DNA of 64,000 nucleotides from Yamadazyma tenuis. Lineage: Eukaryota > Ascomycota > Pichiomycetes > Serinales > Debaryomycetaceae. This document shows positions 1,674-55,593 of this stretch, piece by piece. The stretch spans positions 1,240,001 to 1,304,000 of the forward strand of contig NC_089462.1 in assembly GCF_029203305.1 (NCBI RefSeq), read 5' to 3'. A model generated the notes under the pieces. The model was not told the DNA's origin. It did no database searches and was given only the letters and a program-made list of their open reading frames with translations. The translations under genes were made by a program, and so were the position numbers. How positions within the stretch are numbered: position 1 is the first letter of the stretch; each line of letters opens with the position of its first letter.

Positions 1674-2774
1674 ATGAATCTCCAGATATTCATAATATCA
1701 ATTTTTTTGCTTAGTTTAATCAAAAAGACCTTGAGTACTAAAATCCCCGAATCTAATCTAATGAACAGAACCGTTAAGAAAATCATACATGCTACTGAAA
1801 GACCTGAAGGAGTTGGAGCAATCGTCAGAAGATTCGTCGGTGTCGATGGAATGAGGCAGTTTTCGCCATTCCTAATGGCTGACCACTTCAGCGGTGGAGA
1901 AGGTGGATTTCCAGAACATCCACATTTAGGACAAGAAACCATTACGTACATTACTAAAGGAGCCTTTGCGCACGAAGACTTCACCGGATCCAAAGGAATC
2001 TTGTACGCTGGTGACTTGCAATTTATGACTGCTGGTAAAGGTGTTGTGCATTCTGAAATGCCTGTTCGGTTACCAGATGGTGTCACACCAGCAGGTATTC
2101 AGCTCTGGGTAGATTTACCCCATGAATTGAAGGAAGTGTCCCCAAGGTACAGAGATTTGAGAGCCTATGAGATCCCAGAAGCTGTTGAACAAGATGGAAA
2201 GTTGACAGTCAAAGTCATCAGTGGAAACTCGTATGGTGTTGAATCCTTAAAAGATTTGGCATACACTCCAATCCACTATTACCACTACATTATGAAACCA
2301 GGCTCGATATTCGAACAACCAGTCCCAGAGAACTTCAACGTTTTCCTTTATGTTACTCAAGGTAATGGCTTGAGGTTAAGCGACGGAAACACTTTGAAGC
2401 AAAATAGTGCTGCTTTTTTCAAAATGGACGGATCTTCCATCAAAGGAGCCAATCCTTTGGATTCCGATAACAACATTGAGTTCATGTTGGTTGGAGGAGA
2501 AGTGTTGGATCAACATACTGTCCACTACGGACCTTTTGTTGCCAAGGACCAAGAAAGAATCAGAAGAGCCTTTGCTGATTATCAGAATGCCAGAAATGGG
2601 TTCGCAAACTTGAAGACATGGAAGACTTTAATTAGCGGTGGTGTTACTGAAGACATGATTCAAAACGATTTGAATGGGTCTTTAGAACTCAGAAAAAAGG
2701 CCGAACAAGAATACTTATCCAGGAAGGCTGCTGAACATCAAACACCAATAGAACCTGTGAAAGACGAATTGTAA
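1674..2774 (+). CDS. Pirin-family protein with N-terminal signal-like extension and C-terminal KDEL
   Basis: The 366-residue reading frame carries a bicupin pirin core that begins at the second Met (residue 30, MNRTVKK). The iron-binding histidine/glutamate pattern is visible as HPHLGQETITY, then HED, then VVHSEMP. Pirins are usually nuclear or cytosolic iron-dependent redox sensors or quercetinases. This one has an extra 29-residue N-terminus with a hydrophobic stretch (IFIISIFLLSLI), and it ends in PVKDEL. A signal sequence plus KDEL would place it in the ER lumen. Starting at residue 30 (position 1761) would give a normal cytosolic pirin, so dual localisation is possible. Candida species have several PRN genes; which one this matches is unknown. 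Confidence 0.85.
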   Translation: MNLQIFIISIFLLSLIKKTLSTKIPESNLMNRTVKKIIHATERPEGVGAIVRRFVGVDGMRQFSPFLMADHFSGGEGGFPEHPHLGQETITYITKGAFAHEDFTGSKGILYAGDLQFMTAGKGVVHSEMPVRLPDGVTPAGIQLWVDLPHELKEVSPRYRDLRAYEIPEAVEQDGKLTVKVISGNSYGVESLKDLAYTPIHYYHYIMKPGSIFEQPVPENFNVFLYVTQGNGLRLSDGNTLKQNSAAFFKMDGSSIKGANPLDSDNNIEFMLVGGEVLDQHTVHYGPFVAKDQERIRRAFADYQNARNGFANLKTWKTLISGGVTEDMIQNDLNGSLELRKKAEQEYLSRKAAEHQTPIEPVKDEL

Positions 2775-4421: not shown

Positions 4422-5429
4422 ATGAGATTGAGTACTACTGCTTTGCTTACAATTGCCATAACTACTTCCATAGTTAATTCAGCTCCGACAGTGGCAGAAT
4501 CCGGTGTCGGAGTTATTGCTAAGAGAAGCGATGACTTGGAAAATATCTTGCTCGACTTGCAAAACTTCAAGGACAAGCGAGAAGAAACCTTGAGCACTTT
4601 AAGCAAGAGAGAATATCAAATTGTTACTGATGTTTTGAAAGCTTTGAACGATACGGAATTGGCTCCTAAGATCATTCACTACTTGGCTACTAATTCCACT
4701 TTACAGCCCATTGTCATCAGTACAATTGTCACCGTGTTGAAGAGCGGATTGTTGAACATGACAACATTGTTCAATGCTTTGGATCAGTCTGGGTTGGTTA
4801 CAACGGTGGTACAAGACTTGATTTCTGACTGTTCTTTGTATGTGTCGTTGTTCAGAACTGCAGAAGGAATCATTTCTGACTTGGTTTCTAAGGTTCAATC
4901 TGCTATTAACTCTTCCAAGAGAGATTTGAAGGCCGTGCAAAGACAGGAAAAGCGTACTGCTTTGAAATCTGTTTTAGAAGCTAGATCTAATTTGGATGCT
5001 AGACTTGACTTAGATGAGGTTGTGGTTAATTTGTTGCAATCGTTGGCTAACTCAGGATTAGCCAGTTCGGTTGTTAAGTCTATCATCACTGATTCATCTT
5101 ATATCCCATTTGCCGAAAGCTTGATTTCCGCAGTATTGTCTAGTAATGCCTTGGATTTGGGTGAATTAGTTGATGCTGTTGAAAATACCAACTTGGCTTC
5201 TGATTTGCTTAAGTCCATTTTGAATGTTAACACCTTCGATACTGTCGTCACCAATGCTTTTGCTGCTTTCTCTGGTGATTGTTCTACCTCGTCTGGTTCG
5301 GGCTCGTCTGGTTCTTCTGCCGCCACTACTTCTGCTGGCTCATCGGGTTCTACTTCTACCACCACCACTACTGACCCATGTAAGAAGAAGAGAAGAAGAA
5401 GAAGAAGAAGAGCTAACTACAACTACTAG
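4422..5429 (+). CDS. Secreted OP4-like protein with arginine-rich tail
   Basis: This is a 335-residue protein with a signal peptide (residues 1-20, ending VNSA). Candidate Kex2 sites follow near residues 34-35, 52-53 and 62-63. Two related alpha-helical segments rich in Leu, Val and Ser carry motifs of the kind LAPKIIHYL and LASSVVKSII. A Ser/Gly/Thr-rich linker then leads to a basic tail (a KKK-R7 run before ANYNY). The helical repeats and basic end recall the opaque-phase protein Op4 of Candida albicans and related secreted proteins of CTG yeasts. I make that link from family memory, with moderate confidence. The tail is encoded by an AGA/AAG microsatellite near 5382-5411, so its length may vary between strains. 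Function is unknown. Confidence 0.55.
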   Translation: MRLSTTALLTIAITTSIVNSAPTVAESGVGVIAKRSDDLENILLDLQNFKDKREETLSTLSKREYQIVTDVLKALNDTELAPKIIHYLATNSTLQPIVISTIVTVLKSGLLNMTTLFNALDQSGLVTTVVQDLISDCSLYVSLFRTAEGIISDLVSKVQSAINSSKRDLKAVQRQEKRTALKSVLEARSNLDARLDLDEVVVNLLQSLANSGLASSVVKSIITDSSYIPFAESLISAVLSSNALDLGELVDAVENTNLASDLLKSILNVNTFDTVVTNAFAAFSGDCSTSSGSGSSGSSAATTSAGSSGSTSTTTTTDPCKKKRRRRRRRANYNY

Positions 5430-43381: not shown

Positions 43382-43791
43382 CTTTTCACCTTTTATCTTC
43401 TATATTTGAATCCCACTTGGTAATTCACCTCTAATTATATTGTGTAAGTCTACCTGGATAAGTAAATGTCGCACTCAAGACTATGACTATATTTTTCATG
43501 TCAAGCCAAGTAAGTAAAACTCGCGCTCAGCTGAGTGGTTGCAAAAAAGTGCCAGCGTCTTTGTGTGCTCGCGTGGTTATCTTGTTTGTGGATCAGCACG
43601 AGTATATAAAGAGTGATTGTCTCATCAGTAGAATTTCTCTTCTTCCCACTCTTTTATTTCCAAGTTTGTTCTTAAACAGTTTGAATTAAAACCTTTAAGA
43701 AAGAACCCCGAAATATATCCCACTTACGCTTCACAGCTCTAACCTTCTAACTTCGTGAGAGTCAGAAGCCAGGATTAACTAAAAAGTCAAG
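43382..43791 (+). promoter_or_regulatory. Intergenic region upstream of the interrupted gene
   Basis: This 410-base spacer has a TATA-like GTATATAAAG at about 43602-43611. A frame at 43483-43689 has no coding features. Confidence 0.4.
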
Positions 43792-45251
43792 ATGATGTTC
43801 GTCCCAACCAACCACAGATCCGTTGAAACTGATTTTCATTTCAGTATCAATGTAAGCCACCCCCAGTTCAACTTACCACCAAAGTCAAAGTTCCGGCAGT
43901 TTATGGCCAACATAAAGGAAACCTTCATTCATCCCAAGTACAGAGGTCCCAAGCACAAAGTCAGGAGAATCAAAAAAAAGCTGTTGATCCCTCAAAACAA
44001 AATTAATCATCACAGATCAAAATACGAAAACAAGAAAAGGGACTTTAGGGAAAAGATAGCAAATGGAAAGGACAAAGTGCATGCCAAGAAGGAGAAGCTC
44101 TTCAAACGTTTTAAGTATGCTAAAACACATGTCAAGTGCTTTTTCGCTTCTGGCACAAAGAGGATGAGTCGGATCCACAAAACCCAAAGCTTGAGAACTA
44201 GAGTAATGCTCCACCAAAGAAAGTTGAGCTGGAAGTGCAGAGCTGATTCAAAGAAGATGAAGGCCTTGATTATTGTCAAGAAATTGAAGGCCCTCATCAA
44301 ATCTTTTATCAGCTCAAGTGCCTACGACTGGCATTCCAAGGTTAGAAACTTTCAGAGGAGAGTTTCTAAAATCAGGTTAAAGTTTAGAGACAGGAGCTAC
44401 AGGCTCCTTGAAAACACAAATATCCAGCTCATGATATTTATGTGCAAATTCAAGGGCATCTTTAACTGGTTAAAGTTGTCCATTCTGCTGCTGATGAGAA
44501 AAATGTGTTCCTCGATGTGCCAGATTTTTGCAACCGCGAAACGGAAACGTTCTCACTTGCGGTTAAAGTTTAGAGACAGGAAACTTAGGCTCAAAGAAAA
44601 GTTGAAGACCTTAGCCAGAAAGGTCAGATACCTCAGGTCTTGCATCCAGAGAGTTTTCTTATGGCCAATGGAAAAGATGGTTTCTATGATCAAAATATCG
44701 ATTAAACTTATTGAAGAGAAACTTAATCGGTGGGGTTTAGATGATAAGAAAATGAGATTTGATTTCTTTGTCAATGATTCCAAGGACACAATTCAAACCA
44801 TCAAAGTAGATACCAAATATCGTTGTCAAAATCTCCTCGAGTTTATTATAGAAGAGATTCAGTTGGAAATTTGCTATAGGAGAAGCGAGATTCCGCAAAA
44901 ATTGAAGAGCTTGGAATCAGTGTTATCTGAAATGCGGAGACATATCGAAGTCAGAATCTCGTGTCGGGTTCTGCATCTCAAAGTGAATCATCCACGTTTG
45001 TTCAAGTTCAACTCTTATTTCAGGACGGGATTTGAAGCTACTCCAAGACCATTGAACGAAATTGACAAGTTCTGGATCGATTATAACAAGACTAGATCCA
45101 GGACATTTAGAGATGATGATCGTCACGTTTCCTACAGACTGCATCACCTATATGCAGCAGGTAGAGAAAGAACCTTCCAAAGGAATTTGAATTCTACTCA
45201 ATTTGAAAATCATGCAGCGCTGATCCATCCTGAAAATAGTTGTGGGTATTA
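43792..45251 (+). pseudogene. 5' part of a basic, helical host gene split by a transposon
   Basis: 486 codons are open up to the TA at 45250-45251 where a Tc1-like element begins. The chromosomal frame then runs 24 codons into the element and stops at 45324. The protein is very rich in Lys and Arg and mostly helical, with an internal near-repeat (RLKFRDR at two places, from DNA at about 44374 and 44559). No domain is recognised. The missing C-terminal 205 codons lie at 50675-51292 in the same frame. The intact allele would encode about 691 residues. As it stands the product is truncated with a short foreign tail. Confidence 0.75.
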
Positions 45252-45298
45252 CAGTGTTTTCTGCATGAATATCGCACCCCCCTTTTATGGATGTCGCA
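45252..45298 (+). repeat. Left terminal inverted repeat of the outer element
   Basis: 47 positions pair with 50628-50674 with 39 identical. Fixed blocks are CAGTGTTTTC at 1-10, GCATGAATA at 12-20, CGCAC at 22-26 and GGATGTCGCA at 38-47. Confidence 0.88.
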
Positions 45299-45688
45299 TA
45301 CTCAGTTGTATTAATTTCGGGTGACCCATCGCCTTAATGACGTATATCTCTTCGAATAATTTCGTAGTCGCAAGAAAAATTTGTCACTTGTTAGGATCGT
45401 TAAAGACGTTAGCCCTATGTTTTATTTTACGTATCTCTTTTTCAAAAAAAGTCGTATATTGTATGTAATTATATCGTAGTTATAAACTAAAAATGGCTCG
45501 AACGAAAGGGACGAAATTCGCACCGGGGTGGAACGAATATCGTAGGAGAAAGTCAAAATTTGTCGCACCGCAACAACGCTAAATGCGCACAACCAAAGTG
45601 AAAAATATCGTTTTGCAATCATTTAAATAACGGGTACACATGTATATTAATATCGTACGTGCTTTACGTTAATGCCGCAAACATATAG

Positions 45689-47017
45689 CTAAAGAGGTTG
45701 CTTTTCCAAGCAAGTCGTGAAACAGTTCTCTGAGTGCCTAATACTGTTCTGTATGTGCTCCACAGGGATTTTATTAGCAGCTTCTTTGATTCTAGAAGTG
45801 AGAGTTTCTTTCTGAAGGAGCTTTTCCCTCTTCAATTTACTCTTTAGCTGGTGCCAAAACTGCTCAATTGGGTTAAGCTCAGGAGAGAATGGAGGCAAAT
45901 AGAGAAGTCTGTATCCTCGAGCCTTGATAATTCTAGCAATACTGGCATTTTTATGAATACTAGCGTTATCCATGACCAAATAAGCGTTTTTCATAATAGG
46001 ATGCACATCGAGAACTTCCATTACATCGAGAAGGAATTGTTTGTAATGACCGGTCACGGTTCCCTTCGAAGTATTTTCTGCTTTATCCAAGTCTATCTTG
46101 CGCTTCTTATTCAGAGAAGGGCTTTTTGGTTTTCTAAGACTGAGCTGAACTACCCCATGATAGCACACAGCTCCCAAAATTGTTCTATTTTCAGCACGAG
46201 TTGATGGTGTCTTGACTACAGGGGTTATTCCCTTTGTTGCCCACCCTCTTGAACGTTTCATGTTGATGTGAAAGCCTGCTTCATCTATAAACACACAGTT
46301 TTGAGTGTACTCAATATCAGATTCTAGCACCGATGTTACATATTCGAATCTTTCTTGTATCTTCTTGAAAGAGTTTCTTTCTACGCTCTCCTTACGTGCT
46401 ACTTTAAAAGTCAACACACACTCGTCCTTCAAGAACTTATGAAGGGTGGTCTTACTAACACTTAATCCCATGAAAGATTGGCTCAAATCTTCTAGCATGT
46501 CATCCAAAGTGCAAGAAGGATTGTCATCTACAAATCCTTTCACATGATCTTTGTGGTCATCATTGAGCTTGGGTTTAGCCACCTTTCCTCTCGTTTTTGC
46601 AATTGGTAGCTCTTCGTCTCCTGTTTCTTTGAATTCCTTCACCCAACGTTGAGCATTCCTTGGTTTGATACCTGGTTGCTTAGCAATTGAGGCAATTGAG
46701 GCCCCTGGCTTCTCTATCCATAGATCAAAAAATTCTTCTCGATCTTTTGTACTATAAACTCTATAATGTCTTGTTGCTTTACCATCGTCATCATTATCTG
46801 ACGAGCTCTCGTCGTCATTCGTGCCTTTCTTCTTCAGAGCACTTCTTTCCACAGCAGGGTCACTCAAGCCTGATCTAACAACTTCTCGATACTCTGTCAA
46901 ATCAGTAAGCTTTTCGAGTGGCATACAATCATCAATGTCTGCTTCATCGAGAATTCGAAACCCTTGCTCGTCAACCATATTACTGTCACCATCATCATAT
47001 ACGAATTGGTATTTCAT
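45689..47017 (-). CDS. Tc1/mariner-type DD34E transposase
   Basis: This 442-residue intact frame starts with the ATG at 47017-47015. An acidic leader is followed by a helix-turn-helix (SIASIAKQPGIKPRNAQRWV) and a second helical DNA-binding part (NPSCTLDDMLEDL, VSKTTLHKFL). The catalytic domain has VFIDEAGFHIN, YLVMDNASIHK and LPPFSPELNPIEQFWHQLK. The second Asp and the Glu are separated by 34 residues, so this is a DD34E enzyme. It cuts and pastes DNA at TA sites. No stop or frameshift is visible, so it may be active. It is related to the IS630-Tc1 group, which includes the Cirt elements of Candida. Confidence 0.92.
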   Translation of the reverse strand: MKYQFVYDDGDSNMVDEQGFRILDEADIDDCMPLEKLTDLTEYREVVRSGLSDPAVERSALKKKGTNDDESSSDNDDDGKATRHYRVYSTKDREEFFDLWIEKPGASIASIAKQPGIKPRNAQRWVKEFKETGDEELPIAKTRGKVAKPKLNDDHKDHVKGFVDDNPSCTLDDMLEDLSQSFMGLSVSKTTLHKFLKDECVLTFKVARKESVERNSFKKIQERFEYVTSVLESDIEYTQNCVFIDEAGFHINMKRSRGWATKGITPVVKTPSTRAENRTILGAVCYHGVVQLSLRKPKSPSLNKKRKIDLDKAENTSKGTVTGHYKQFLLDVMEVLDVHPIMKNAYLVMDNASIHKNASIARIIKARGYRLLYLPPFSPELNPIEQFWHQLKSKLKREKLLQKETLTSRIKEAANKIPVEHIQNSIRHSENCFTTCLEKQPL

Positions 47018-47234
47018 TGTCGCTTTATTTTAGATAAAGTAGTTGTAAAAGCGATATTAATTTATCCCCTGTCGCGACAATTTACATTTCTCTCTGCGAA
47101 TTTTATACACCTCGACCCACGAATTTGAAAATCGAGCGAGACGAAATTAAATTGGGCGGAAAGCGAACTTTTCTACAGTGCTGTGCGACATTAATAGAGG
47201 TCAAATACGCTTGGATTATACTTACCCAGCGATA

Positions 47235-48300
47235 CAGTGTTTTCAGAATAAATAGCGAACCTTCGTAATGAGGATGTCGCATTAACATACTTTCAGTTTC
47301 GTTCTAGCATAAATTTTATATCGCGTGGGACAGGTTCGAACGCCGGAAACTCGGAATATAAATATCGCAAGTATACACTGGAATATCGGAATATCGTTCG
47401 TAAAAGAAAGTAATGTCGCTATTCGTATATTTAATACGAAAAATATCGAGTCTGAAACATTAAAGACTTGACGGAAAATAATGATAATCCAAAACGATAA
47501 CTTCTCTACCACTCGGGCAAATATCCCAACACTCTTGAATAGAAACAATGCTGAGTATCACATTGGTAATATATGTAATATATAAGATAGCTAATGAATA
47601 TATCGTATATATGTATATATGGATCTGCCACTTATAAATTTCGCTTTGTATCGAATCCAATATCCTTGCTTCTACTGAGAAAGGAGATAAATTGAATACA
47701 TATGATTTGTTATGAACAAATTCCTAACAAATGACTGAGAGCTTGACTAATTTGGGAGCCCCGCTTTCGCGACGATCACTACATTTTTAGGGCGAATGTG
47801 TCACAAAACCTACGTGACTAACGCCGGAAAAAGTCTCATGGTGTACTTATACCAGGATTGTTCCATAATTAATCCCCTTATTGATTAAATATGAAAATTG
47901 TTTTTGCAATTGGTTTTTTTGTTCTGTTTCTTAGTTTTTGCTCAGCTGCCACTTCACAGCAATCCTTAGAATTACAGAGTAACATCACGAAATGGTTTCA
48001 CCATGTAACAGAGGAAGGTTTGAATAATTGGGGCCAGATAGAGCTTACTTTAGATGATAATGAGTTACTGGTGTATTATAGTGATTTCCACAACGGTACA
48101 TCCCCGGAGTCATTGCGTATCAGAACTGTTTCTGCTAACATGTGTCCCTTAATGGTCAGACACTATTTTGATAGGCCAGCACCTACCGATGCGAATATTG
48201 TTGCTTCCCTGCATGGCGATATCACTACCAGAGAATACCTGCCAGAAATTAGTTTTGGGGCGTTTGACGTGTCTGCTCTCAACTTTCAAGTGGCAAACTC
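47235..48300 (+). repeat. Left inverted arm of the inner element
   Basis: This arm is near-identical to the reverse complement of 49391-50451. Seen differences include a seven-T tract here against six on the right arm (47914-47920 versus 49767-49772), CTAAC against CCAAC near 47730, and C against T at offset 22 of the terminal repeat. Similarity stops abruptly at GGCAAACTC. Confidence 0.88.
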
Positions 48301-48322
48301 CCGCGGAAGTTCAGATCTGTGA
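47891..48322 (+). pseudogene. Truncated copy of a K28-like secreted toxin-like gene
   Basis: A 143-residue frame starts at ATG 47891 with an intact signal peptide (MKIVFAIGFFVLFLSFCSA). It has N-glycosylation sequons (NIT, NGT) and follows the first part of the longer copy at 49795-48966. At 48301, where the inverted arm ends, the sequence switches and the frame closes after six unrelated codons. It therefore lacks the Kex2 site, the cysteine-rich domain and the HDEL end. It could still be secreted as a short protein; such truncated precursors can act as immunity factors in other killer systems, but that is speculation here. Confidence 0.7.
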
Positions 48323-48965
48323 ACTTGTGGTTCACTAAAATTGTTAGTTGGACCAGGAAGCAGCGCAGGCAGCTGTCAGTTTAGGTGGCTTAAGCACGAA
48401 TTAGTGGGCCACGTCAACCAAGAGAGATACTTGAGTATTTTATATACTGTATTACGAACGTTGGAGATATGTACGATAGGAGACCGGAGATGATTGGTTG
48501 ACATTAAGAATATAATTAGTCGAGAAAATGGGATAAGAGATATCGGAAAGCGTTACTTGAAACTCTTCAATTAAGATACTGTAGTTACACATAATAAATA
48601 AACTATTTAAATTGTTAACAGCGCCCAACCCAGCAAGCTTGTCCAAAATTTTGCTGATGACTGAAAAGGCGATTTACAGAAATCTTGTTTTATTCAATTA
48701 TCATGAGCTGATATGTAGCACAATTTCTTAGAAAAAAGCTCTTGTAAATGTTCGAGTTGTGAATTTTGAACTGGATGAGTCCAAGGATATATATTATAGA
48801 CTATGTGAGATAAGTTTACGATACTTGAAAGATATTCAGTGCCAAGGGCAAGGCAAGACAAGAATGGAATCTTTTGGGAGGTTCTCCATTTGTAGGTACT
48901 TCTGGTTCCCGTAGTAGCAAATATTCCCTGAGACTATCGACTGTCTCCCTGATAAGAACGAGTAT
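48323..48965. other. Unique centre of the inner element
   Basis: These 643 bases lie between the stop of the truncated copy and the stop of the long copy. The DNA is AT-rich except for a GC-richer 100 bases just after the arm junction. No frame has coding features. It would be the loop of a hairpin formed by the two arms. Confidence 0.5.
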
Positions 48966-49795
48966 TCACAATTCATCGTGGTCCCAGGTTGTTCCACATC
49001 CATCACATTCACAGTAATTCTTCGTATACTTAGCACCAGCCCAAATCTTGTAAGAATACATGTTATACTTTGCGCAACCACTATGATTAGGGTATAAACC
49101 ATAATAGTGGTCATCCCCTTTGGCACACCAATGATGTGGCCACAAATGATAAACGATCTCGTAATAACATCTGGCATTATGAACCCAAGCTGACTTCGCA
49201 TAATCATACGAGTTATGGCAGTCACCCAATTCAGTGGTCCAAGTATGTTCCACAAGGAACGGTGTTTCACTATCATCGCAATCACTATTTTCGTGCCTGT
49301 AAACAGTTCCCCATACAACATTTCGCTTTTGTACGGGTGAACTTGAATAATCACTTGAATTGTTTCTTTGGGCACCTCCAAGCTGCGAGTTTGCCACTTG
49401 AAAGTTGAGAGCAGACACGTCAAACGCCCCAAAACTAATTTCTGGCAGGTATTCTCTGGTAGTGATATCGCCATGCAGGGAAGCAACAATATTCGCATCG
49501 GTAGGTGCTGGCCTATCAAAATAGTGTCTGACCATTAAGGGACACATGTTAGCAGAAACAGTTCTGATACGCAATGACTCCGGGGATGTACCGTTGTGGA
49601 AATCACTATAATACACCAGTAACTCATTATCATCTAAAGTAAGCTCTATCTGGCCCCAATTATTCAAACCTTCCTCTGTTACATGGTGAAACCATTTCGT
49701 GATGTTACTCTGTAATTCTAAGGATTGCTGTGAAGTGGCAGCTGAGCAAAAACTAAGAAACAGAACAAAAAACCAATTGCAAAAACAATTTTCAT
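48966..49795 (-). pseudogene. Long copy of a K28-like secreted, HDEL-terminated toxin-like gene, start out of frame
   Basis: The long frame encodes a hydrophobic signal-like start, an N-terminal region with sequons, a Kex2 site (VQKR, near residue 160 of the open frame), and a C-terminal domain of about 118 residues with eight cysteines that ends DHDEL. Signal, KR cut, Cys-rich C-terminal chain and HDEL match the plan of the K28 viral killer preprotoxin, whose beta chain uses HDEL for retrograde travel through the ER. Sequence identity to K28 is not claimed. The ATG that corresponds to the other copy (49795-49793) is out of frame because the following T tract is one base shorter, and the open frame itself has no ATG until well inside. 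This copy therefore looks broken, unless it is a sequencing error in a homopolymer. Confidence 0.7.
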
Positions 49796-50451
49796 ATTTA
49801 ATCAATAAGGGGATTAATTATGGAACAATCCTGGTATAAGTACACCATGAGACTTTTTCCGGCGTTAGTCACGTAGGTTTTGTGACACATTCGCCCTAAA
49901 AATGTAGTGATCGTCGCGAAAGCGGGGCTCCCAAATTAGTCAAGCTCTCAGTCATTTGTTGGGAATTTGTTCATAACAAATCATATGTATTCAATTTATC
50001 TCCTTTCTCAGTAGAAGCAAGGATATTGGATTCGATACAAAGCGAAATTTATAAGTGGCAGATCCATATATACATATATACGATATATTCATTAGCTATC
50101 TTATATATTACATATATTACCAATGTGATACTCAGCATTGTTTCTATTCAAGAGTGTTGGGATATTTGCCCGAGTGGTAGAGAAGTTATCGTTTTGGATT
50201 ATCATTATTTTCCGTCAAGTCTTTAATGTTTCAGACTCGATATTTTTCGTATTAAATATACGAATAGCGACATTACTTTCTTTTACGAACGATATTCCGA
50301 TATTCCAGTGTATACTTGCGATATTTATATTCCGAGTTTCCGGCGTTCGAACCTGTCCCACGCGATATAAAATTTATGCTAGAACGAAACTGAAAGTATG
50401 TTAATGCGACATCCTCATTACGAAGGTTCACTATTTATTCTGAAAACACTG
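49391..50451 (-). repeat. Right inverted arm of the inner element
   Basis: This is the partner of 47235-48300. It contains the 5' part of the long toxin-like gene and about 650 bases of upstream DNA with TATCG and TATATA words. Beyond 49391 toward lower coordinates only this copy continues into the cysteine-rich domain. Confidence 0.88.
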
Positions 50452-50627
50452 TATTATAGTTCTTGAAAAGCCGAAAATCATTGATTTCTTGAACGTCAAA
50501 ATTCATGATAGTGAGCGAAGTCAAACCAAGAGAACCTACGAATTTATTCTGATGTCTTTGGCGCAATTTGAAGATTTCAAGTGCGCTATTATTTCTTTAT
50601 CATAGGCGTATTTAAAATAGATCCAAG

Positions 50628-50674
50628 TGCGACATCCAGTTAAGGAGAGTGCGTTATTCATGCCGAAAATACTG
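50628..50674 (-). repeat. Right terminal inverted repeat of the outer element
   Basis: This is the reverse complement of the left end with 39 of 47 identical positions; it ends in ATACTG followed by the target TA. Its codons lie within the open frame 50627-51292 only by chance. Confidence 0.88.
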
Positions 50675-51292
50675 TACAAGCAAAAAATTGCAGATCAGCA
50701 CGTTAAAATGAATCTTGCAGCACCAGAAACATATGATGTTGTTGTAACTAAGGATAACTATTTTACTGGTGAAGAGAGCTTTGGTACTATTGGTGTTAAT
50801 GCAGGTGTGTTTCCTGTTGGCTTCAGAATCAATTGTGATAGACTTGAAACTGTCGCTGATAAATGTTCTTCAAAAGCTCAGAGTATTGAGATTAACAATC
50901 CAGTAAACGAAAAGAACTTGCTGGAATGGAGTAAAGATGAAAAAGCCAGGGATTCAGAGGGTGTCGACCAAAGTGATATATCCTCCCCCTGCAACAATGA
51001 AAAGGGCCCTTTTACCGTTGTAGAGGAGGTTGTTTCACTACCTGTCAACATCGCTAGTGGCACTGAAAAAGAAGAAAAAAACGAAGATGTTCCCACGTTT
51101 CTGGAGCACCCTACTTTGAGAAAAAGCCCTACTTATTCAAGTATACTTTCCTCGAAAATCACATTCTACGAAAAGAACCAGGAAACTTATTCAAGACCCA
51201 CTAAGCCTAGACTTATACCAAAGGCAAAGTCAAGAGGAACATTAGTCAATTCCATGGTTCTGAAATTTGAGCAATTAGAAGCTGTGGCATGA
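50675..51292 (+). pseudogene. 3' part of the host gene split by the transposon
   Basis: From the TA at 50675 the frame reads TAC AAG CAA, continuing exactly where 45249 stopped if one TA is counted once. The 205 codons encode an acidic, mostly disordered C-terminal region (KDEKARDSEG, EEEKNEDVP-like stretches) with a basic end (PTKPRLIPKAKSRGT). Upstream open codons from 50627 belong to the transposon end. No domain is recognised. A diverged fragment of its last codons is found again, inverted, near 61770. Confidence 0.75.
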
Positions 51293-51990
51293 AGGAAGAG
51301 CTCCATATCAGTGTTTATTCACCTAACTTACTTCCTGGTAATGGCTTGGTCCCTGGTGATACTGATGTTCGGTATGATAATGATGCTGCTGTTATGTGAG
51401 TAGGTTGGAATTATTCCTTTATTCGACCCCATCCTACTCAGATATCACCAACAGAAGAAATTATAGTTAACATGATTGTCCTCAGATCCATACCATTGTT
51501 GTGAATGGGATTTCAAAGGTTTACACGCTCAACATTACCATAATCTGATGGATTGTAAGCTTATTTGAATTAACACCAATACTATTCGACCCCAATAAGC
51601 TTGCAACTCCAACAGAAGAGGAAGTGTTGTATAAGCCCCTGTGAAATCCAAGTCATGACGGAGGCTAAATCATAATGGGTCTTCAGTTGGATATGATGAG
51701 ATCACTGTTGATATGCAAGTAGCTTGGAATTATTTCACCTTTATTCAACCCCAGACTACTTCCAAAATTACAGTATTCCGACAATAGACCTCCACTGACC
51801 CTCAGATACTAGACCACTACTTATGTCGCTGTTGAAAATCCACAACAGGCAAACACCGGATGCTCAGTTACATTATGAGACCCGCACCACAGATAAATTA
51901 GCAAAACGCTGACTATTCAACAACACATTGGAGTAATAAAGACCAAAGTGATTCCTGATATCTGATCAGGTTTTGGAACCAGACTTTTTA
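51240..51990 (+). repeat. Left copy of a diverged inverted repeat
   Basis: This copy pairs with 61235-61790 on the other strand. The best block is 51538-51590 against 61428-61480 with 51 of 53 positions the same. Other matching blocks are around 51245-51266 (the end of the split host gene), 51380-51500, 51820-51850 and 51966-51980. Within the repeat, a word like TTATTCGACCCC recurs at about 51419, 51584 and 51740, so it has internal duplication. Confidence 0.75.
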
Positions 51991-53568: not shown

Positions 53569-53892
53569 ACCGGTAACTATCTCAGGAGTTATAGCTAATT
53601 AATTTTCTGATTATCTGAGACTTGCGGACCCTGATCAACGCGAAAATAATACGATACAGGCTTAGGATATACGCACACAGTTTATATAATATAGATATCC
53701 TAATCAATCCTTCTGCTGCTGGTTGACTGCAAGATGTTGGAATAGCGGGTTATTGTCCTTTCTAGAGATTCGCTTAAGAATAGTCATTACTAGTCAGCCG
53801 AGGTAGTGCCAGCTACCGACACGCGCGACTACAGGAGGAAATTATATCTGAACACATTTCACTTAGTCCTTAAAACAAAAGATATTATTATA
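53569..53892. promoter_or_regulatory. Divergent CWC21/mannosyltransferase promoter
   Basis: This 324-base region has AT-rich TATATAATATAGATA near 53681-53696. A TGTTGGAATA at about 53734 resembles the start of Ty-type long terminal repeats, but no matching end is found. No gene is seen. Confidence 0.4.
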
Positions 53893-55593
53893 ATGTTCAG
53901 ATTAAAAGCTAAGTTTATTGTTCTAGCAATACTGTTAATATTTTTGTTGGTTCTCACTTTGGAAAACTTTGAGAAGTTCATGGAATATGGTCAACTCAGC
54001 TTCTATCCAAGTGACGAAGAAGAGATGAACTTCAAACCTATCATCGGACAGAATATTGATACAGACCCCAGGCATAGTTTTTGGACAGATGTATTCAATA
54101 TTATTGAAGGCGGTAGCATTAACATAACTCAAGGGGATATTAGCACAGCTGTACAGTATGTGGATAAATCACAACAACAAGAAGGACCTAATTCCAAATC
54201 TGTACTATTGTCTAAGGCATATATATCTCCAGAGACGACTAGAGAATTGACAATGAAACACAATTTCGTAATGTCTACGCTACCAAGAAAATTACATAAA
54301 TCCACATACGTGAAGGGTGCCAATGGAATTGTTATTATTGGAGGACAGAAGTTTTCATGGTTATCTTATCTTTCTTTGGTGGCTTTGAGGAAATCTGGAT
54401 CAAATATCCCAGTGGAAATAGTAATGCCCCAACACGAAGACTTCGTTCAAGAACAAGAATTCTGTCAAAAAACCCTACCCAAGTTGAATGCGAGATGTGT
54501 TGTTCTAGCAGAATCCTTAGGAGCTGAGGTTATGTTTAAATGGTCGTCCAATTTTGCTAACTATCAATTAAAGTCACTAGCTTTGATGGTTTCAAGCTTT
54601 CAGAATGTACTATTGTTGGATTCTGACAACATTCTTGTTCAAAACCCGGATTCTCTCTTCACAAGTAAATTATTCAAAGACTATGGAATGGTAACTTGGC
54701 CAGACTACTGGGAAAGAACAATATCTCCAGTATTTTACGACATAAGCGGGTTGAAGGTGAATGAAGATAAACGCGTAAGGTACAACAGATTCCCCTTAGC
54801 GACTCCCGATGGGCTAACAAGCAACTTGAATACGAGAGAATCTATAGCTGATGAGGTGCCTTATCATGATCTAGAAGGTGCCATTCCCAACTTATCTACA
54901 GAGTCAGGTCAAGTTTTAATCAACAAGGATACCCATGCGTGTACTTTATTGTTGTCGATGTATTACAACATGTTGGGTCCAAACTTGTATTATAAGTTAT
55001 TTTCCTTGGGAGAACAGGGAGAGGGTGATAAAGACACTTTTCCTGCGGCGGCTAGTGTGTGTGGAGAGAATTTCTATCAGGTTAAGTCATTTATACGAAC
55101 GTTTGGCTACTTTGATGACGGTGGTAATTTTCAAGGTGTGGCTATGGGTCAAAAGGATCCGCTCGGTGATTACGAAAAGTATCAAAAATATTTGGAAACT
55201 CCTTCAAAATCAAAGGAAAATAAACATATACCTATCAAGTCCCAAATTGAGAACATTGACAACTTACAGAAAGAGCACTTCTCTGGAGATTCTGGAAAAC
55301 TATTTGCCATTCACTGTAACTTTCCAAAATTTGACCCTGTAGGTTTGCTTGCGAGAGAAGATTTGTGGGATGCTGAAAACAAGAGGCTTAAATATCGACT
55401 TTTTAGTGGATTCACCTATGATGATCCTAACATCAAAGCAAAGACTTTGGATTTCGAATTAGAGCAATGGAAAAACATCGAGAAAGCTCTTTGCAGCGAG
55501 ACAATCGATTTTCCGTACTTTAAGTCAGAGAATATTGAAGAAATATGTACGCTTGCAAGAAACCAAGTGAGATTCCTTCAAAGTGTTCCATAA
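53893..55593 (+). CDS. MNN2-type alpha-1,2-mannosyltransferase (GT71)
   Basis: This 566-residue type II membrane protein has a short cytosolic tail and one helix (about residues 8-24, FIVLAILLIFLLVL), followed by a lumenal catalytic domain. Family motifs include IVIIGGQKFSWLSYLSL, a DxD metal site in LLLDSDN (Asp243 and Asp245), WPDYW, SGQVLINK and FPAAASVCGENFYQV. Mnn2/Mnn5-type enzymes add the first alpha-1,2-linked mannose to the alpha-1,6 backbone of N-glycan outer chains in the Golgi. Candida species have six (MNN21-26); which one this is cannot be told. The ATG at 53893 leaves the short cytosolic tail usual for the family. Confidence 0.88.
   Translation: MFRLKAKFIVLAILLIFLLVLTLENFEKFMEYGQLSFYPSDEEEMNFKPIIGQNIDTDPRHSFWTDVFNIIEGGSINITQGDISTAVQYVDKSQQQEGPNSKSVLLSKAYISPETTRELTMKHNFVMSTLPRKLHKSTYVKGANGIVIIGGQKFSWLSYLSLVALRKSGSNIPVEIVMPQHEDFVQEQEFCQKTLPKLNARCVVLAESLGAEVMFKWSSNFANYQLKSLALMVSSFQNVLLLDSDNILVQNPDSLFTSKLFKDYGMVTWPDYWERTISPVFYDISGLKVNEDKRVRYNRFPLATPDGLTSNLNTRESIADEVPYHDLEGAIPNLSTESGQVLINKDTHACTLLLSMYYNMLGPNLYYKLFSLGEQGEGDKDTFPAAASVCGENFYQVKSFIRTFGYFDDGGNFQGVAMGQKDPLGDYEKYQKYLETPSKSKENKHIPIKSQIENIDNLQKEHFSGDSGKLFAIHCNFPKFDPVGLLAREDLWDAENKRLKYRLFSGFTYDDPNIKAKTLDFELEQWKNIEKALCSETIDFPYFKSENIEEICTLARNQVRFLQSVP

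What the first reader, a model, noticed from the sequence alone, without database searches (positions are those of the whole stretch)
47235..50451. Transposon-borne, inverted-duplicated K28-like toxin gene pair
A transposase-less element with TA target sites carries two head-on copies of a gene whose product has a signal peptide, N-glycosylation sites, a Kex2 site, an eight-cysteine C-terminal chain and a terminal HDEL. That is the plan of the K28 killer preprotoxin, normally encoded by a dsRNA virus satellite. A chromosomal, transposon-carried version would be a route for killer genes to spread between yeasts and may be undescribed. The architecture is seen directly; the toxin role is inferred.
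Basis: partly seen in the sequence, partly recalled or inferred. Interest (0 to 1): 0.92.

Follow-up and report, generated by a model that had tools for sequence, protein, structure and literature searches.

The report
Jumping gene carrying killer-toxin-like gene
In this yeast genome a small cut-and-paste jumping gene carries a broken gene that looks like a secreted killer toxin, and sister jumping genes in the same genome carry other toxin-like genes, so such elements may be a way for yeasts to move their weapons around.

Summary
The element is real: 47235-50451 is flanked by TA and ends in inverted repeats of about 1.07 kb. It belongs to the Tc1/mariner group and sits inside a second, related element (45252-50674) that encodes an intact DD34E transposase. 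Two corrections: the left gene copy is only the N-terminal half, and the right copy, the only one with the Kex2 site, eight-cysteine chain and HDEL, has its ATG out of frame. As assembled, neither copy encodes the whole protein.

"K28" is a resemblance, not membership: no similarity found, one KR instead of two, eight C-chain cysteines against four, HDEL unmasked (K28 has HDELR).

The toxin reading is strengthened by sister elements. Of 10 elements seen with both ends, 4 hold more than a transposase, and by my reading all 4 hold preprotoxin-like cargo. One is a confident SMK killer-toxin family member (PF21414, PF21415; solved structure 1kvd). One has a 53%-identical unbroken relative. One is a possible-to-probable decayed relative of the window gene. 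All four cargoes are broken as assembled. Verdict: Tc1/mariner elements carrying killer-toxin-like cargo in what appears to be a CTG-clade yeast; toxin function inferred.

The parts
45252..50674 (.). Outer Tc1/mariner element (TIRs 45250-45299 and 50628-50676 including TA); about 2.2 kb without the insert (hand count)
   Evidence: TIR pair 49 nt, 84% complementary; TA flanks; TIR family pattern hits at both ends
45689..47017 (-). Intact transposase ORF, 442 aa, DD34E (D245, D350, E385)
   Evidence: PF13358 DDE_3 E 1.6e-28; triad spacing 34; 270 relatives at E <= 1e-20 among 4930 candidates
47235..50451 (.). Inner non-autonomous element, the finding; TA on both sides
47235..48300 (+). Left arm of the long inverted repeat
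   Evidence: 3 differences from the right arm; lengths
49387..50451 (-). Right arm of the long inverted repeat
47891..48322 (+). Left gene copy: signal-peptide region plus N-terminal part, 143 aa, truncated before the Kex2 site
48966..49795 (-). Right gene copy: complete C-terminal part, but the ATG is out of frame with the rest
49323..49328 (-). KR codons, the only dibasic site in the 254 residues read (candidate Kex2 site)
48969..49322 (-). C-chain, 118 aa, eight Cys, ends in HDEL directly before TGA
48301..49386 (.). Unique spacer between the arms (holds the C-terminal half of the right copy)

Best explanation
A non-autonomous Tc1/mariner transposon carries as cargo a gene for a secreted, Kex2-type preproprotein of killer-toxin style. 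It belongs to a group of related transposons in this genome whose larger or transposase-less members carry killer-toxin-like genes of at least three kinds with no clear similarity to one another. Shown: TIRs, TA flanks, nesting in a related element with an intact DD34E transposase, cargo anatomy, and an SMK-family toxin in a more distantly related sister element. Inferred: related transposases move the element by cut and paste through the shared ends; the ancestral gene entered the ER by its signal peptide, was cut once after KR, and gave a cysteine-rich C-chain that acts on competing yeasts. An inverted duplication of about 1.07 kb then produced the present palindrome with one truncated and one frame-broken copy, so this locus probably makes no complete toxin today. 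The truncated copy, with an intact start, could at most make the N-terminal part.
For: TIRs, TA and near-identical arms; nesting and intact transposase. Sister element L031 (C3) carries an ORF above the gathering cut-offs of both SMK models (36.7 and 35.7 bits against 27) and matches both chains of solved SMK toxin 1kvd (E 7.2e-8 and 1.6e-7). Sister element L026 (C1), with ends 86-88% identical to the window arms over 66-120 bp, carries a two-piece Cys-rich ORF with a hydrophobic start and KR sites; its larger piece is 53% identical to P0121, which is unbroken. Sister element L032 (C6) carries a transposase relic plus a cargo relic with a WPHHxCxKGD match to the window C-chain. Own-genome searches with the window protein, the SMK ORF and P0121 found no further copy outside the elements, apart from one marginal P0121 hit, E 0.03.
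Against: No homolog, family or confident model for the window protein itself. HDEL is unmasked, which would be expected to hold the protein in the producer's ER. All four recognised cargoes are broken as assembled, so current function is undemonstrated. The L032 link is weak: tblastn E 0.006, while the same search gave chance-looking hits at 0.011 and 0.014; 1 of 1000 shuffled C-chains reached its score, and the N-terminal half shows no similarity, 367 of 1000. The L026 and window cargoes are called toxin-like by architecture only. The own-genome searches are not exhaustive: searches did not report the decayed pieces later seen in L032 and L031.
Confidence: 0.6

Rival explanations
1. The cargo is a captured gene for an ER-resident or secreted protein with no toxin role. 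HDEL simply retains it in the ER, and the transposon picked it up by chance.
For: HDEL stands directly before the stop, the normal form for ER-resident proteins (general knowledge); K28 instead has a terminal Arg that masks HDEL until Kex1 removes it (PMC5666379 passages). No toxin family matches the protein.
Against: Only the two window copies were found in the genome and no homolog among 5.8 billion proteins at that sensitivity. ER-resident families are usually conserved (general knowledge). The KR site before a Cys-rich chain and the SMK gene in a sister element fit a toxin better.
Confidence: 0.22
2. A selfish poison-antidote module: toxin and self-protection travel on the transposon, so cells that lose it are killed. 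The truncated copy with an intact start could be a left-over protective form.
For: K28 precursor confers immunity (PMC5666379 passages) and PMC9974470 (passage) says a non-toxic precursor could in theory protect. The left copy keeps an intact start and the N-terminal half only.
Against: In K28 the beta part takes part in immunity, and the truncated copy lacks the C-chain. No expression data. The toxin copy is broken, so there is nothing to protect against here now.
Confidence: 0.08
3. A true K28 homolog, captured from a dsRNA satellite into DNA and then carried by a transposon.
For: Same order of parts: signal region, glycosylation sites and one Cys in the N-part, Kex2 site, Cys-bearing C-chain, HDEL.
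Against: No similarity found, though no K28 sequence was compared directly. One KR rather than two, eight rather than four Cys, no masking Arg. [quoted passage not shown]
Confidence: 0.04
4. Dead DNA: palindromic debris in which the gene decays and no present function exists. This concerns the present state and is compatible with a toxin past.
For: Left copy truncated, right copy frame-broken, and the other three recognised cargoes also broken.
Against: The arms differ at only 3 places in about 1066 bp, and the right copy's C-terminal part is open with all cysteines and HDEL, so decay looks recent. The frame break could be an assembly error.
Confidence: 0.06

Closest known systems
IS630-Tc1-mariner DNA transposons (DD34E group)
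   Same: TIRs beginning CAGT, TA target, DD34E transposase with N-terminal HTH, non-autonomous derivatives, nested insertion
   Different: The larger or transposase-less members here carry preprotoxin-like genes; arms stretched into a palindrome of about 1.07 kb
K28 killer preprotoxin (M28 dsRNA satellite)
   Same: Order: signal region, glycosylation sites in the N-part, dibasic site, Cys-containing C-chain, HDEL; one Cys in the N-chain
   Different: No detected sequence similarity; one KR instead of sites on both sides of gamma; eight C-chain Cys instead of four; HDEL not masked by Arg; DNA transposon instead of dsRNA
SMK (salt-mediated killer toxin, Millerozyma farinosa; PF21414, PF21415)
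   Same: A sister element (L031) carries a member of this family in the same genome
   Different: The window protein does not match either SMK model
Genome-encoded killer toxins linked to other mobile DNA (Starships, LTR-flanked KTA2, near-tRNA KKT genes; passages of PMC12691639 and PMC7888664)
   Same: Killer genes associated with mobile DNA
   Different: Those involve large Starship elements or retroelements; here small TA-targeting cut-and-paste elements

Membership tests
Tc1/mariner transposon (non-autonomous) | Terminal inverted repeats | tested here: met
Tc1/mariner transposon (non-autonomous) | TA target duplication | tested here: met
   TA at both ends of inner and outer element
Tc1/mariner transposon (non-autonomous) | DD34E/D transposase in matching full-length relatives | tested here: met
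   outer element D245-D350-E385, 34 residues between D2 and E; PF13358
Tc1/mariner transposon (non-autonomous) | Mobility of the toxin-bearing element itself | tested here: inconclusive
   Single element in this genome. A related 2,233-bp element has 5 copies with 0-2 mismatches
K28 killer preprotoxin | Sequence similarity to K28 | tested here: inconclusive
   None at E <= 1e-3 among the 125 candidates sharing exact words out of 5.8 billion proteins; no K28 sequence was compared directly
K28 killer preprotoxin | Kex2 sites on both sides of a glycosylated gamma part | tested here: not met
   one dibasic site in 254 residues
K28 killer preprotoxin | C-terminal HDELR, Arg masking HDEL | tested here: not met
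   HDEL followed by TGA; K28 from PMC5666379 and PMC13211469 passages
K28 killer preprotoxin | One Cys in alpha, four in beta | tested here: not met
   one in N-chain, eight in C-chain; K28 from PMC13211469 passage
K28 killer preprotoxin | Encoded by a dsRNA satellite | tested here: not met
   chromosomal DNA; no relative in viral contigs
K28 killer preprotoxin | Erd2-dependent uptake and killing | not testable with these tools
   needs an assay
SMK toxin family | Match to PF21414/PF21415 - window protein | tested here: not met
   0 families
SMK toxin family | Match to PF21414/PF21415 - sister element L031 | tested here: met
   36.7 and 35.7 bits, cut-off 27 each; 1kvd chains B and A

The most novel reading that the evidence does not exclude
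A lineage of small Tc1/mariner elements in CTG-clade yeasts is a specialised vehicle for killer toxins: related ends and transposases have repeatedly taken up different preprotoxin genes (HDEL type, SMK type, a twelve-cysteine KR-processed type) and move them within, and perhaps between, genomes, with toxin plus self-protection paying for the transposon's upkeep.
Probability: 0.38. Interest if true: 0.9.

Novelty: new variant of a known kind. Interest (0 to 1): 0.75.

Why it matters
How killer genes appear sporadically across unrelated yeasts is open. dsRNA satellites, plasmids, retrotransposition and Starships are the vehicles named in the passages I read (PMC12691639). A small cut-and-paste transposon family carrying several different killer-type genes would be a further and very simple vehicle, and toxins could be found by scanning transposon interiors, which similarity searches for known toxins miss. 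It also gives a testable case of toxin cargo favouring a DNA transposon.

Tried and rejected
Protein-level search for the window protein: 125 candidates, none at E <= 1e-3. IMG/VR: no relative. Plasmids: one chance hit, E 0.4. PDB: nothing for the two window pieces, chance hits for the L026 and L032 pieces (E 6.6 and 1.2). Pfam, NCBIfam, PHROGs: nothing above chance for the window protein; a weak sub-threshold Pfam hit (PAW, E 0.036) for L032 was set aside. AlphaFold of the C-chain without an alignment: mean pLDDT 34; of P0121 with the L026 pieces: 39. Both unusable, so no fold search was run. CTG-codon excess as a sign of foreign origin: Fisher p 0.04 for the window gene and 0.013 for L032, seven sets tested without correction, so inconclusive. 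SMK and P0121 in viral contigs: none. Single TIR ends (8 of 26 pattern hits): 4 were read downstream in six frames and one by its ORF list (C3), no cargo recognised; the C7 one was only covered by the tblastn; two (C2:25768, C4:236344) were covered only by that tblastn and not read by eye. Reading both copies as working genes was rejected. dsRNA-hairpin silencing from the palindrome was considered, not tested.

Full report
Where it lies. A tRNA with anticodon CAG at C6:602651 has G at position 33 and a final G. I read this as the tRNA-Ser(CAG) of CTG-Ser-clade yeasts; that diagnosis is recalled knowledge, and ARAGORN itself labels the gene tRNA-Leu from the anticodon. In this host CTG should then read Ser, which changes three letters in the 254 residues of the window protein. 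The host species was not identified.

The element. Arms 47235-48300 and 49387-50451 (1066 and 1065 bp) are inverted copies with 3 differences. TA stands outside both ends. Its ends belong to a TIR family whose pattern is seen at 26 places in the genome, against 1 for the control pattern. The element is nested: 45250-45299 and 50628-50676 are TIRs of an outer element (84% complementary). Taking the insert away leaves about 2.2 kb (hand count), like the 2,233-bp transposase-only element present in five copies with 0-2 mismatches to the first. The outer transposase (45689-47017) is open, matches DDE_3 (E 1.6e-28) and has D245, D350, E385 with 34 residues between the last two. Of the 120 relatives listed (270 in all at E <= 1e-20), the first eight are unnamed entries (74-49% identity); named ones further down include many Mucoromycota, Candida pseudojiufengensis and Metschnikowia pulcherrima.

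The gene copies. The plus copy (47891-48322) starts in frame but leaves the repeat after the N-terminal part; it has no KR, no cysteine-rich chain and no HDEL. The minus copy is open from 49805 to 48966. In the part read (49730 to 48969) it holds five N-X-S/T matches, two of them overlapping and one in the C-chain, one Cys before and eight after the only KR, and HDEL directly before TGA. Its ATG at 49795 is out of frame and ends after 25 codons. No signal-peptide predictor was run; the hydrophobic start is judged by eye. Among 183 stop-to-stop frames of at least 100 codons in the window and 19 held loci (some overlapping), 2 end in xDEL: this one and a pirin-like one.

Search for relatives. 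None in 5.8 billion proteins at the sensitivity of that tool, in IMG/VR, in PDB or in family libraries. In the own genome only the two window copies were reported by protein search; that search did not report the L032 relic described below, so it is not exhaustive for decayed copies.

Sister elements. I count 10 elements with both ends seen: five 2,233-bp copies, the outer element, the inner element, and those on C1 (L026), C3 (L031) and C6 (L032). Six hold only a transposase of their own (in the outer one the inserted element is left aside). The other four (inner, L026, L031, L032) hold, by my reading, preprotoxin-like cargo. L031 is 4,437 bp; its ends (82% complementary) are more distant from the window's and were not hit by the TIR pattern, and its transposase relic is 57% identical to the window's. 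Its ORF 4442-5104 (minus) matches SMK beta (36.7 bits) and SMK alpha (35.7 bits), both above the cut-off of 27, and both chains of the solved SMK toxin 1kvd. A stop lies between this ORF and an upstream hydrophobic start (by eye). A second SMK-alpha-like piece lies on the other strand (E 4.5e-4). L026 is 1,257 bp with ends 86-88% identical to the window arms over 66-120 bp. It holds two pieces of a Cys-rich ORF with KR and N-glycosylation sites, interrupted by one TGA. P0121, an unbroken 197-aa protein from an unnamed 1,577-bp contig, is 53% identical to the larger piece. L032 is 2,392 bp with 298-bp TIRs (95%). It has a transposase relic with stops and a cargo relic: one piece has KR, then 14 residues, then Cys, the same spacing as in the window (read by eye), and a piece in another frame has a 17-residue, 53% match to the window C-chain (WPHHxCxKGD). 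That match had tblastn E 0.006 with the window chain as query and 3.8e-4 the other way round, over 206 kb; in the same table chance-looking hits reached 0.011 and 0.014. With shuffled C-chains, 1 of 1000 reached the score of 62; three control element interiors gave 34-45; for the N-terminal half 367 of 1000 shuffles reached the score, that is, no similarity. I call this a possible-to-probable decayed relative.

Are the cargoes host genes? Own-genome searches with the window protein, the SMK ORF and P0121 found nothing outside these elements except one marginal P0121 hit, E 0.03, at C1:1371762, not followed. The L032 cargo was not searched for by itself. One search did not report the second SMK-alpha-like piece in L031, so decayed copies elsewhere can have been missed.

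Limits of the count. Eight further TIR hits are single ends, some with 3 mismatches and perhaps chance. Four of them were read downstream and one by its ORF list, and showed no cargo that I recognised. L026 and window cargoes are toxin-like by architecture, not by family. Only the SMK case rests on a curated model.

Compared with K28. From passages of PMC5666379 and PMC13211469, K28 has a gamma part cut out at dibasic sites, one Cys in alpha and four in beta, and HDEL masked by a terminal Arg so that the toxin can leave the producer. The window protein has one KR, eight Cys in the C-chain, and an unmasked HDEL. It resembles K28 in the order of its parts, is not shown to be a member, and the unmasked HDEL would be expected to hold it in the producer's ER unless retention is leaky. 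A mechanism like K28 (uptake through the HDEL receptor) is possible, not favoured.

Mechanism, most likely. Cut-and-paste movement through the TIRs by a related transposase (inferred from ends, TA and an intact DD34E enzyme next door). Cargo acts as a secreted antagonistic protein (inferred from anatomy and the SMK sister). A local inverted duplication made the palindrome. Present function at this locus is probably absent.

Novelty. Ten library searches (search listings, with passages from nine papers) gave no report, in the listings and passages seen, of a killer toxin gene inside a Tc1/mariner element. The library holds open-licence papers only, and one paper that I looked for was not held. 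A passage of PMC12691639 links transfer of killer genes to retrotransposition, plasmids and Starships and describes an LTR-flanked killer gene (KTA2). PMC7888664 passages place K1-like genes mostly in subtelomeres. A passage of PMC10427833 already raises the possibility that killer genes are associated with transposable elements, citing a large transposon (Enterprise) with Spok genes. Transposon-linked killer genes are thus not a new kind; this vehicle and its repeated cargo appear to be a new variant.

Noticed in passing
window 43556-45249 and 50677-51984; L027 1081-2797, L037 889-2251: Host sequence on both sides of the outer element is duplicated on C1 (97% and 92%), and both copies are interrupted by the same transposon family at TA dinucleotides 3 bp apart.
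   Followed up: partly
G000:C1:1293767-1317943 (L027, L035, L036, L028): About 24 kb bounded by two near-identical 2,233-bp elements in opposite orientation with TA at the outer ends (a third copy lies inside), holding two GLEYA/PA14 adhesin ORFs: looks like a composite transposon.
   Followed up: partly
L031 6017-6127 (+) and 6198-6392 (-): A second decayed SMK-alpha-like piece and the start of a second transposase inside the SMK-bearing element, suggesting nesting there too.
   Followed up: no
window 1674-2774 (+): Pirin-like 366-aa protein (name from general knowledge) with a hydrophobic start and a terminal KDEL, which seems unusual for a pirin.
   Followed up: no
L028 1429-3661 and 6712-8944: Two transposon copies on C1 with the same left flank 5.28 kb apart, pointing to a local tandem duplication.
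   Followed up: no
window 53806-55593 (+): Mannosyltransferase gene (PF11051) near the element; a related-looking ORF lies in the C1 region L035 5763-6893, judged by eye.
   Followed up: no
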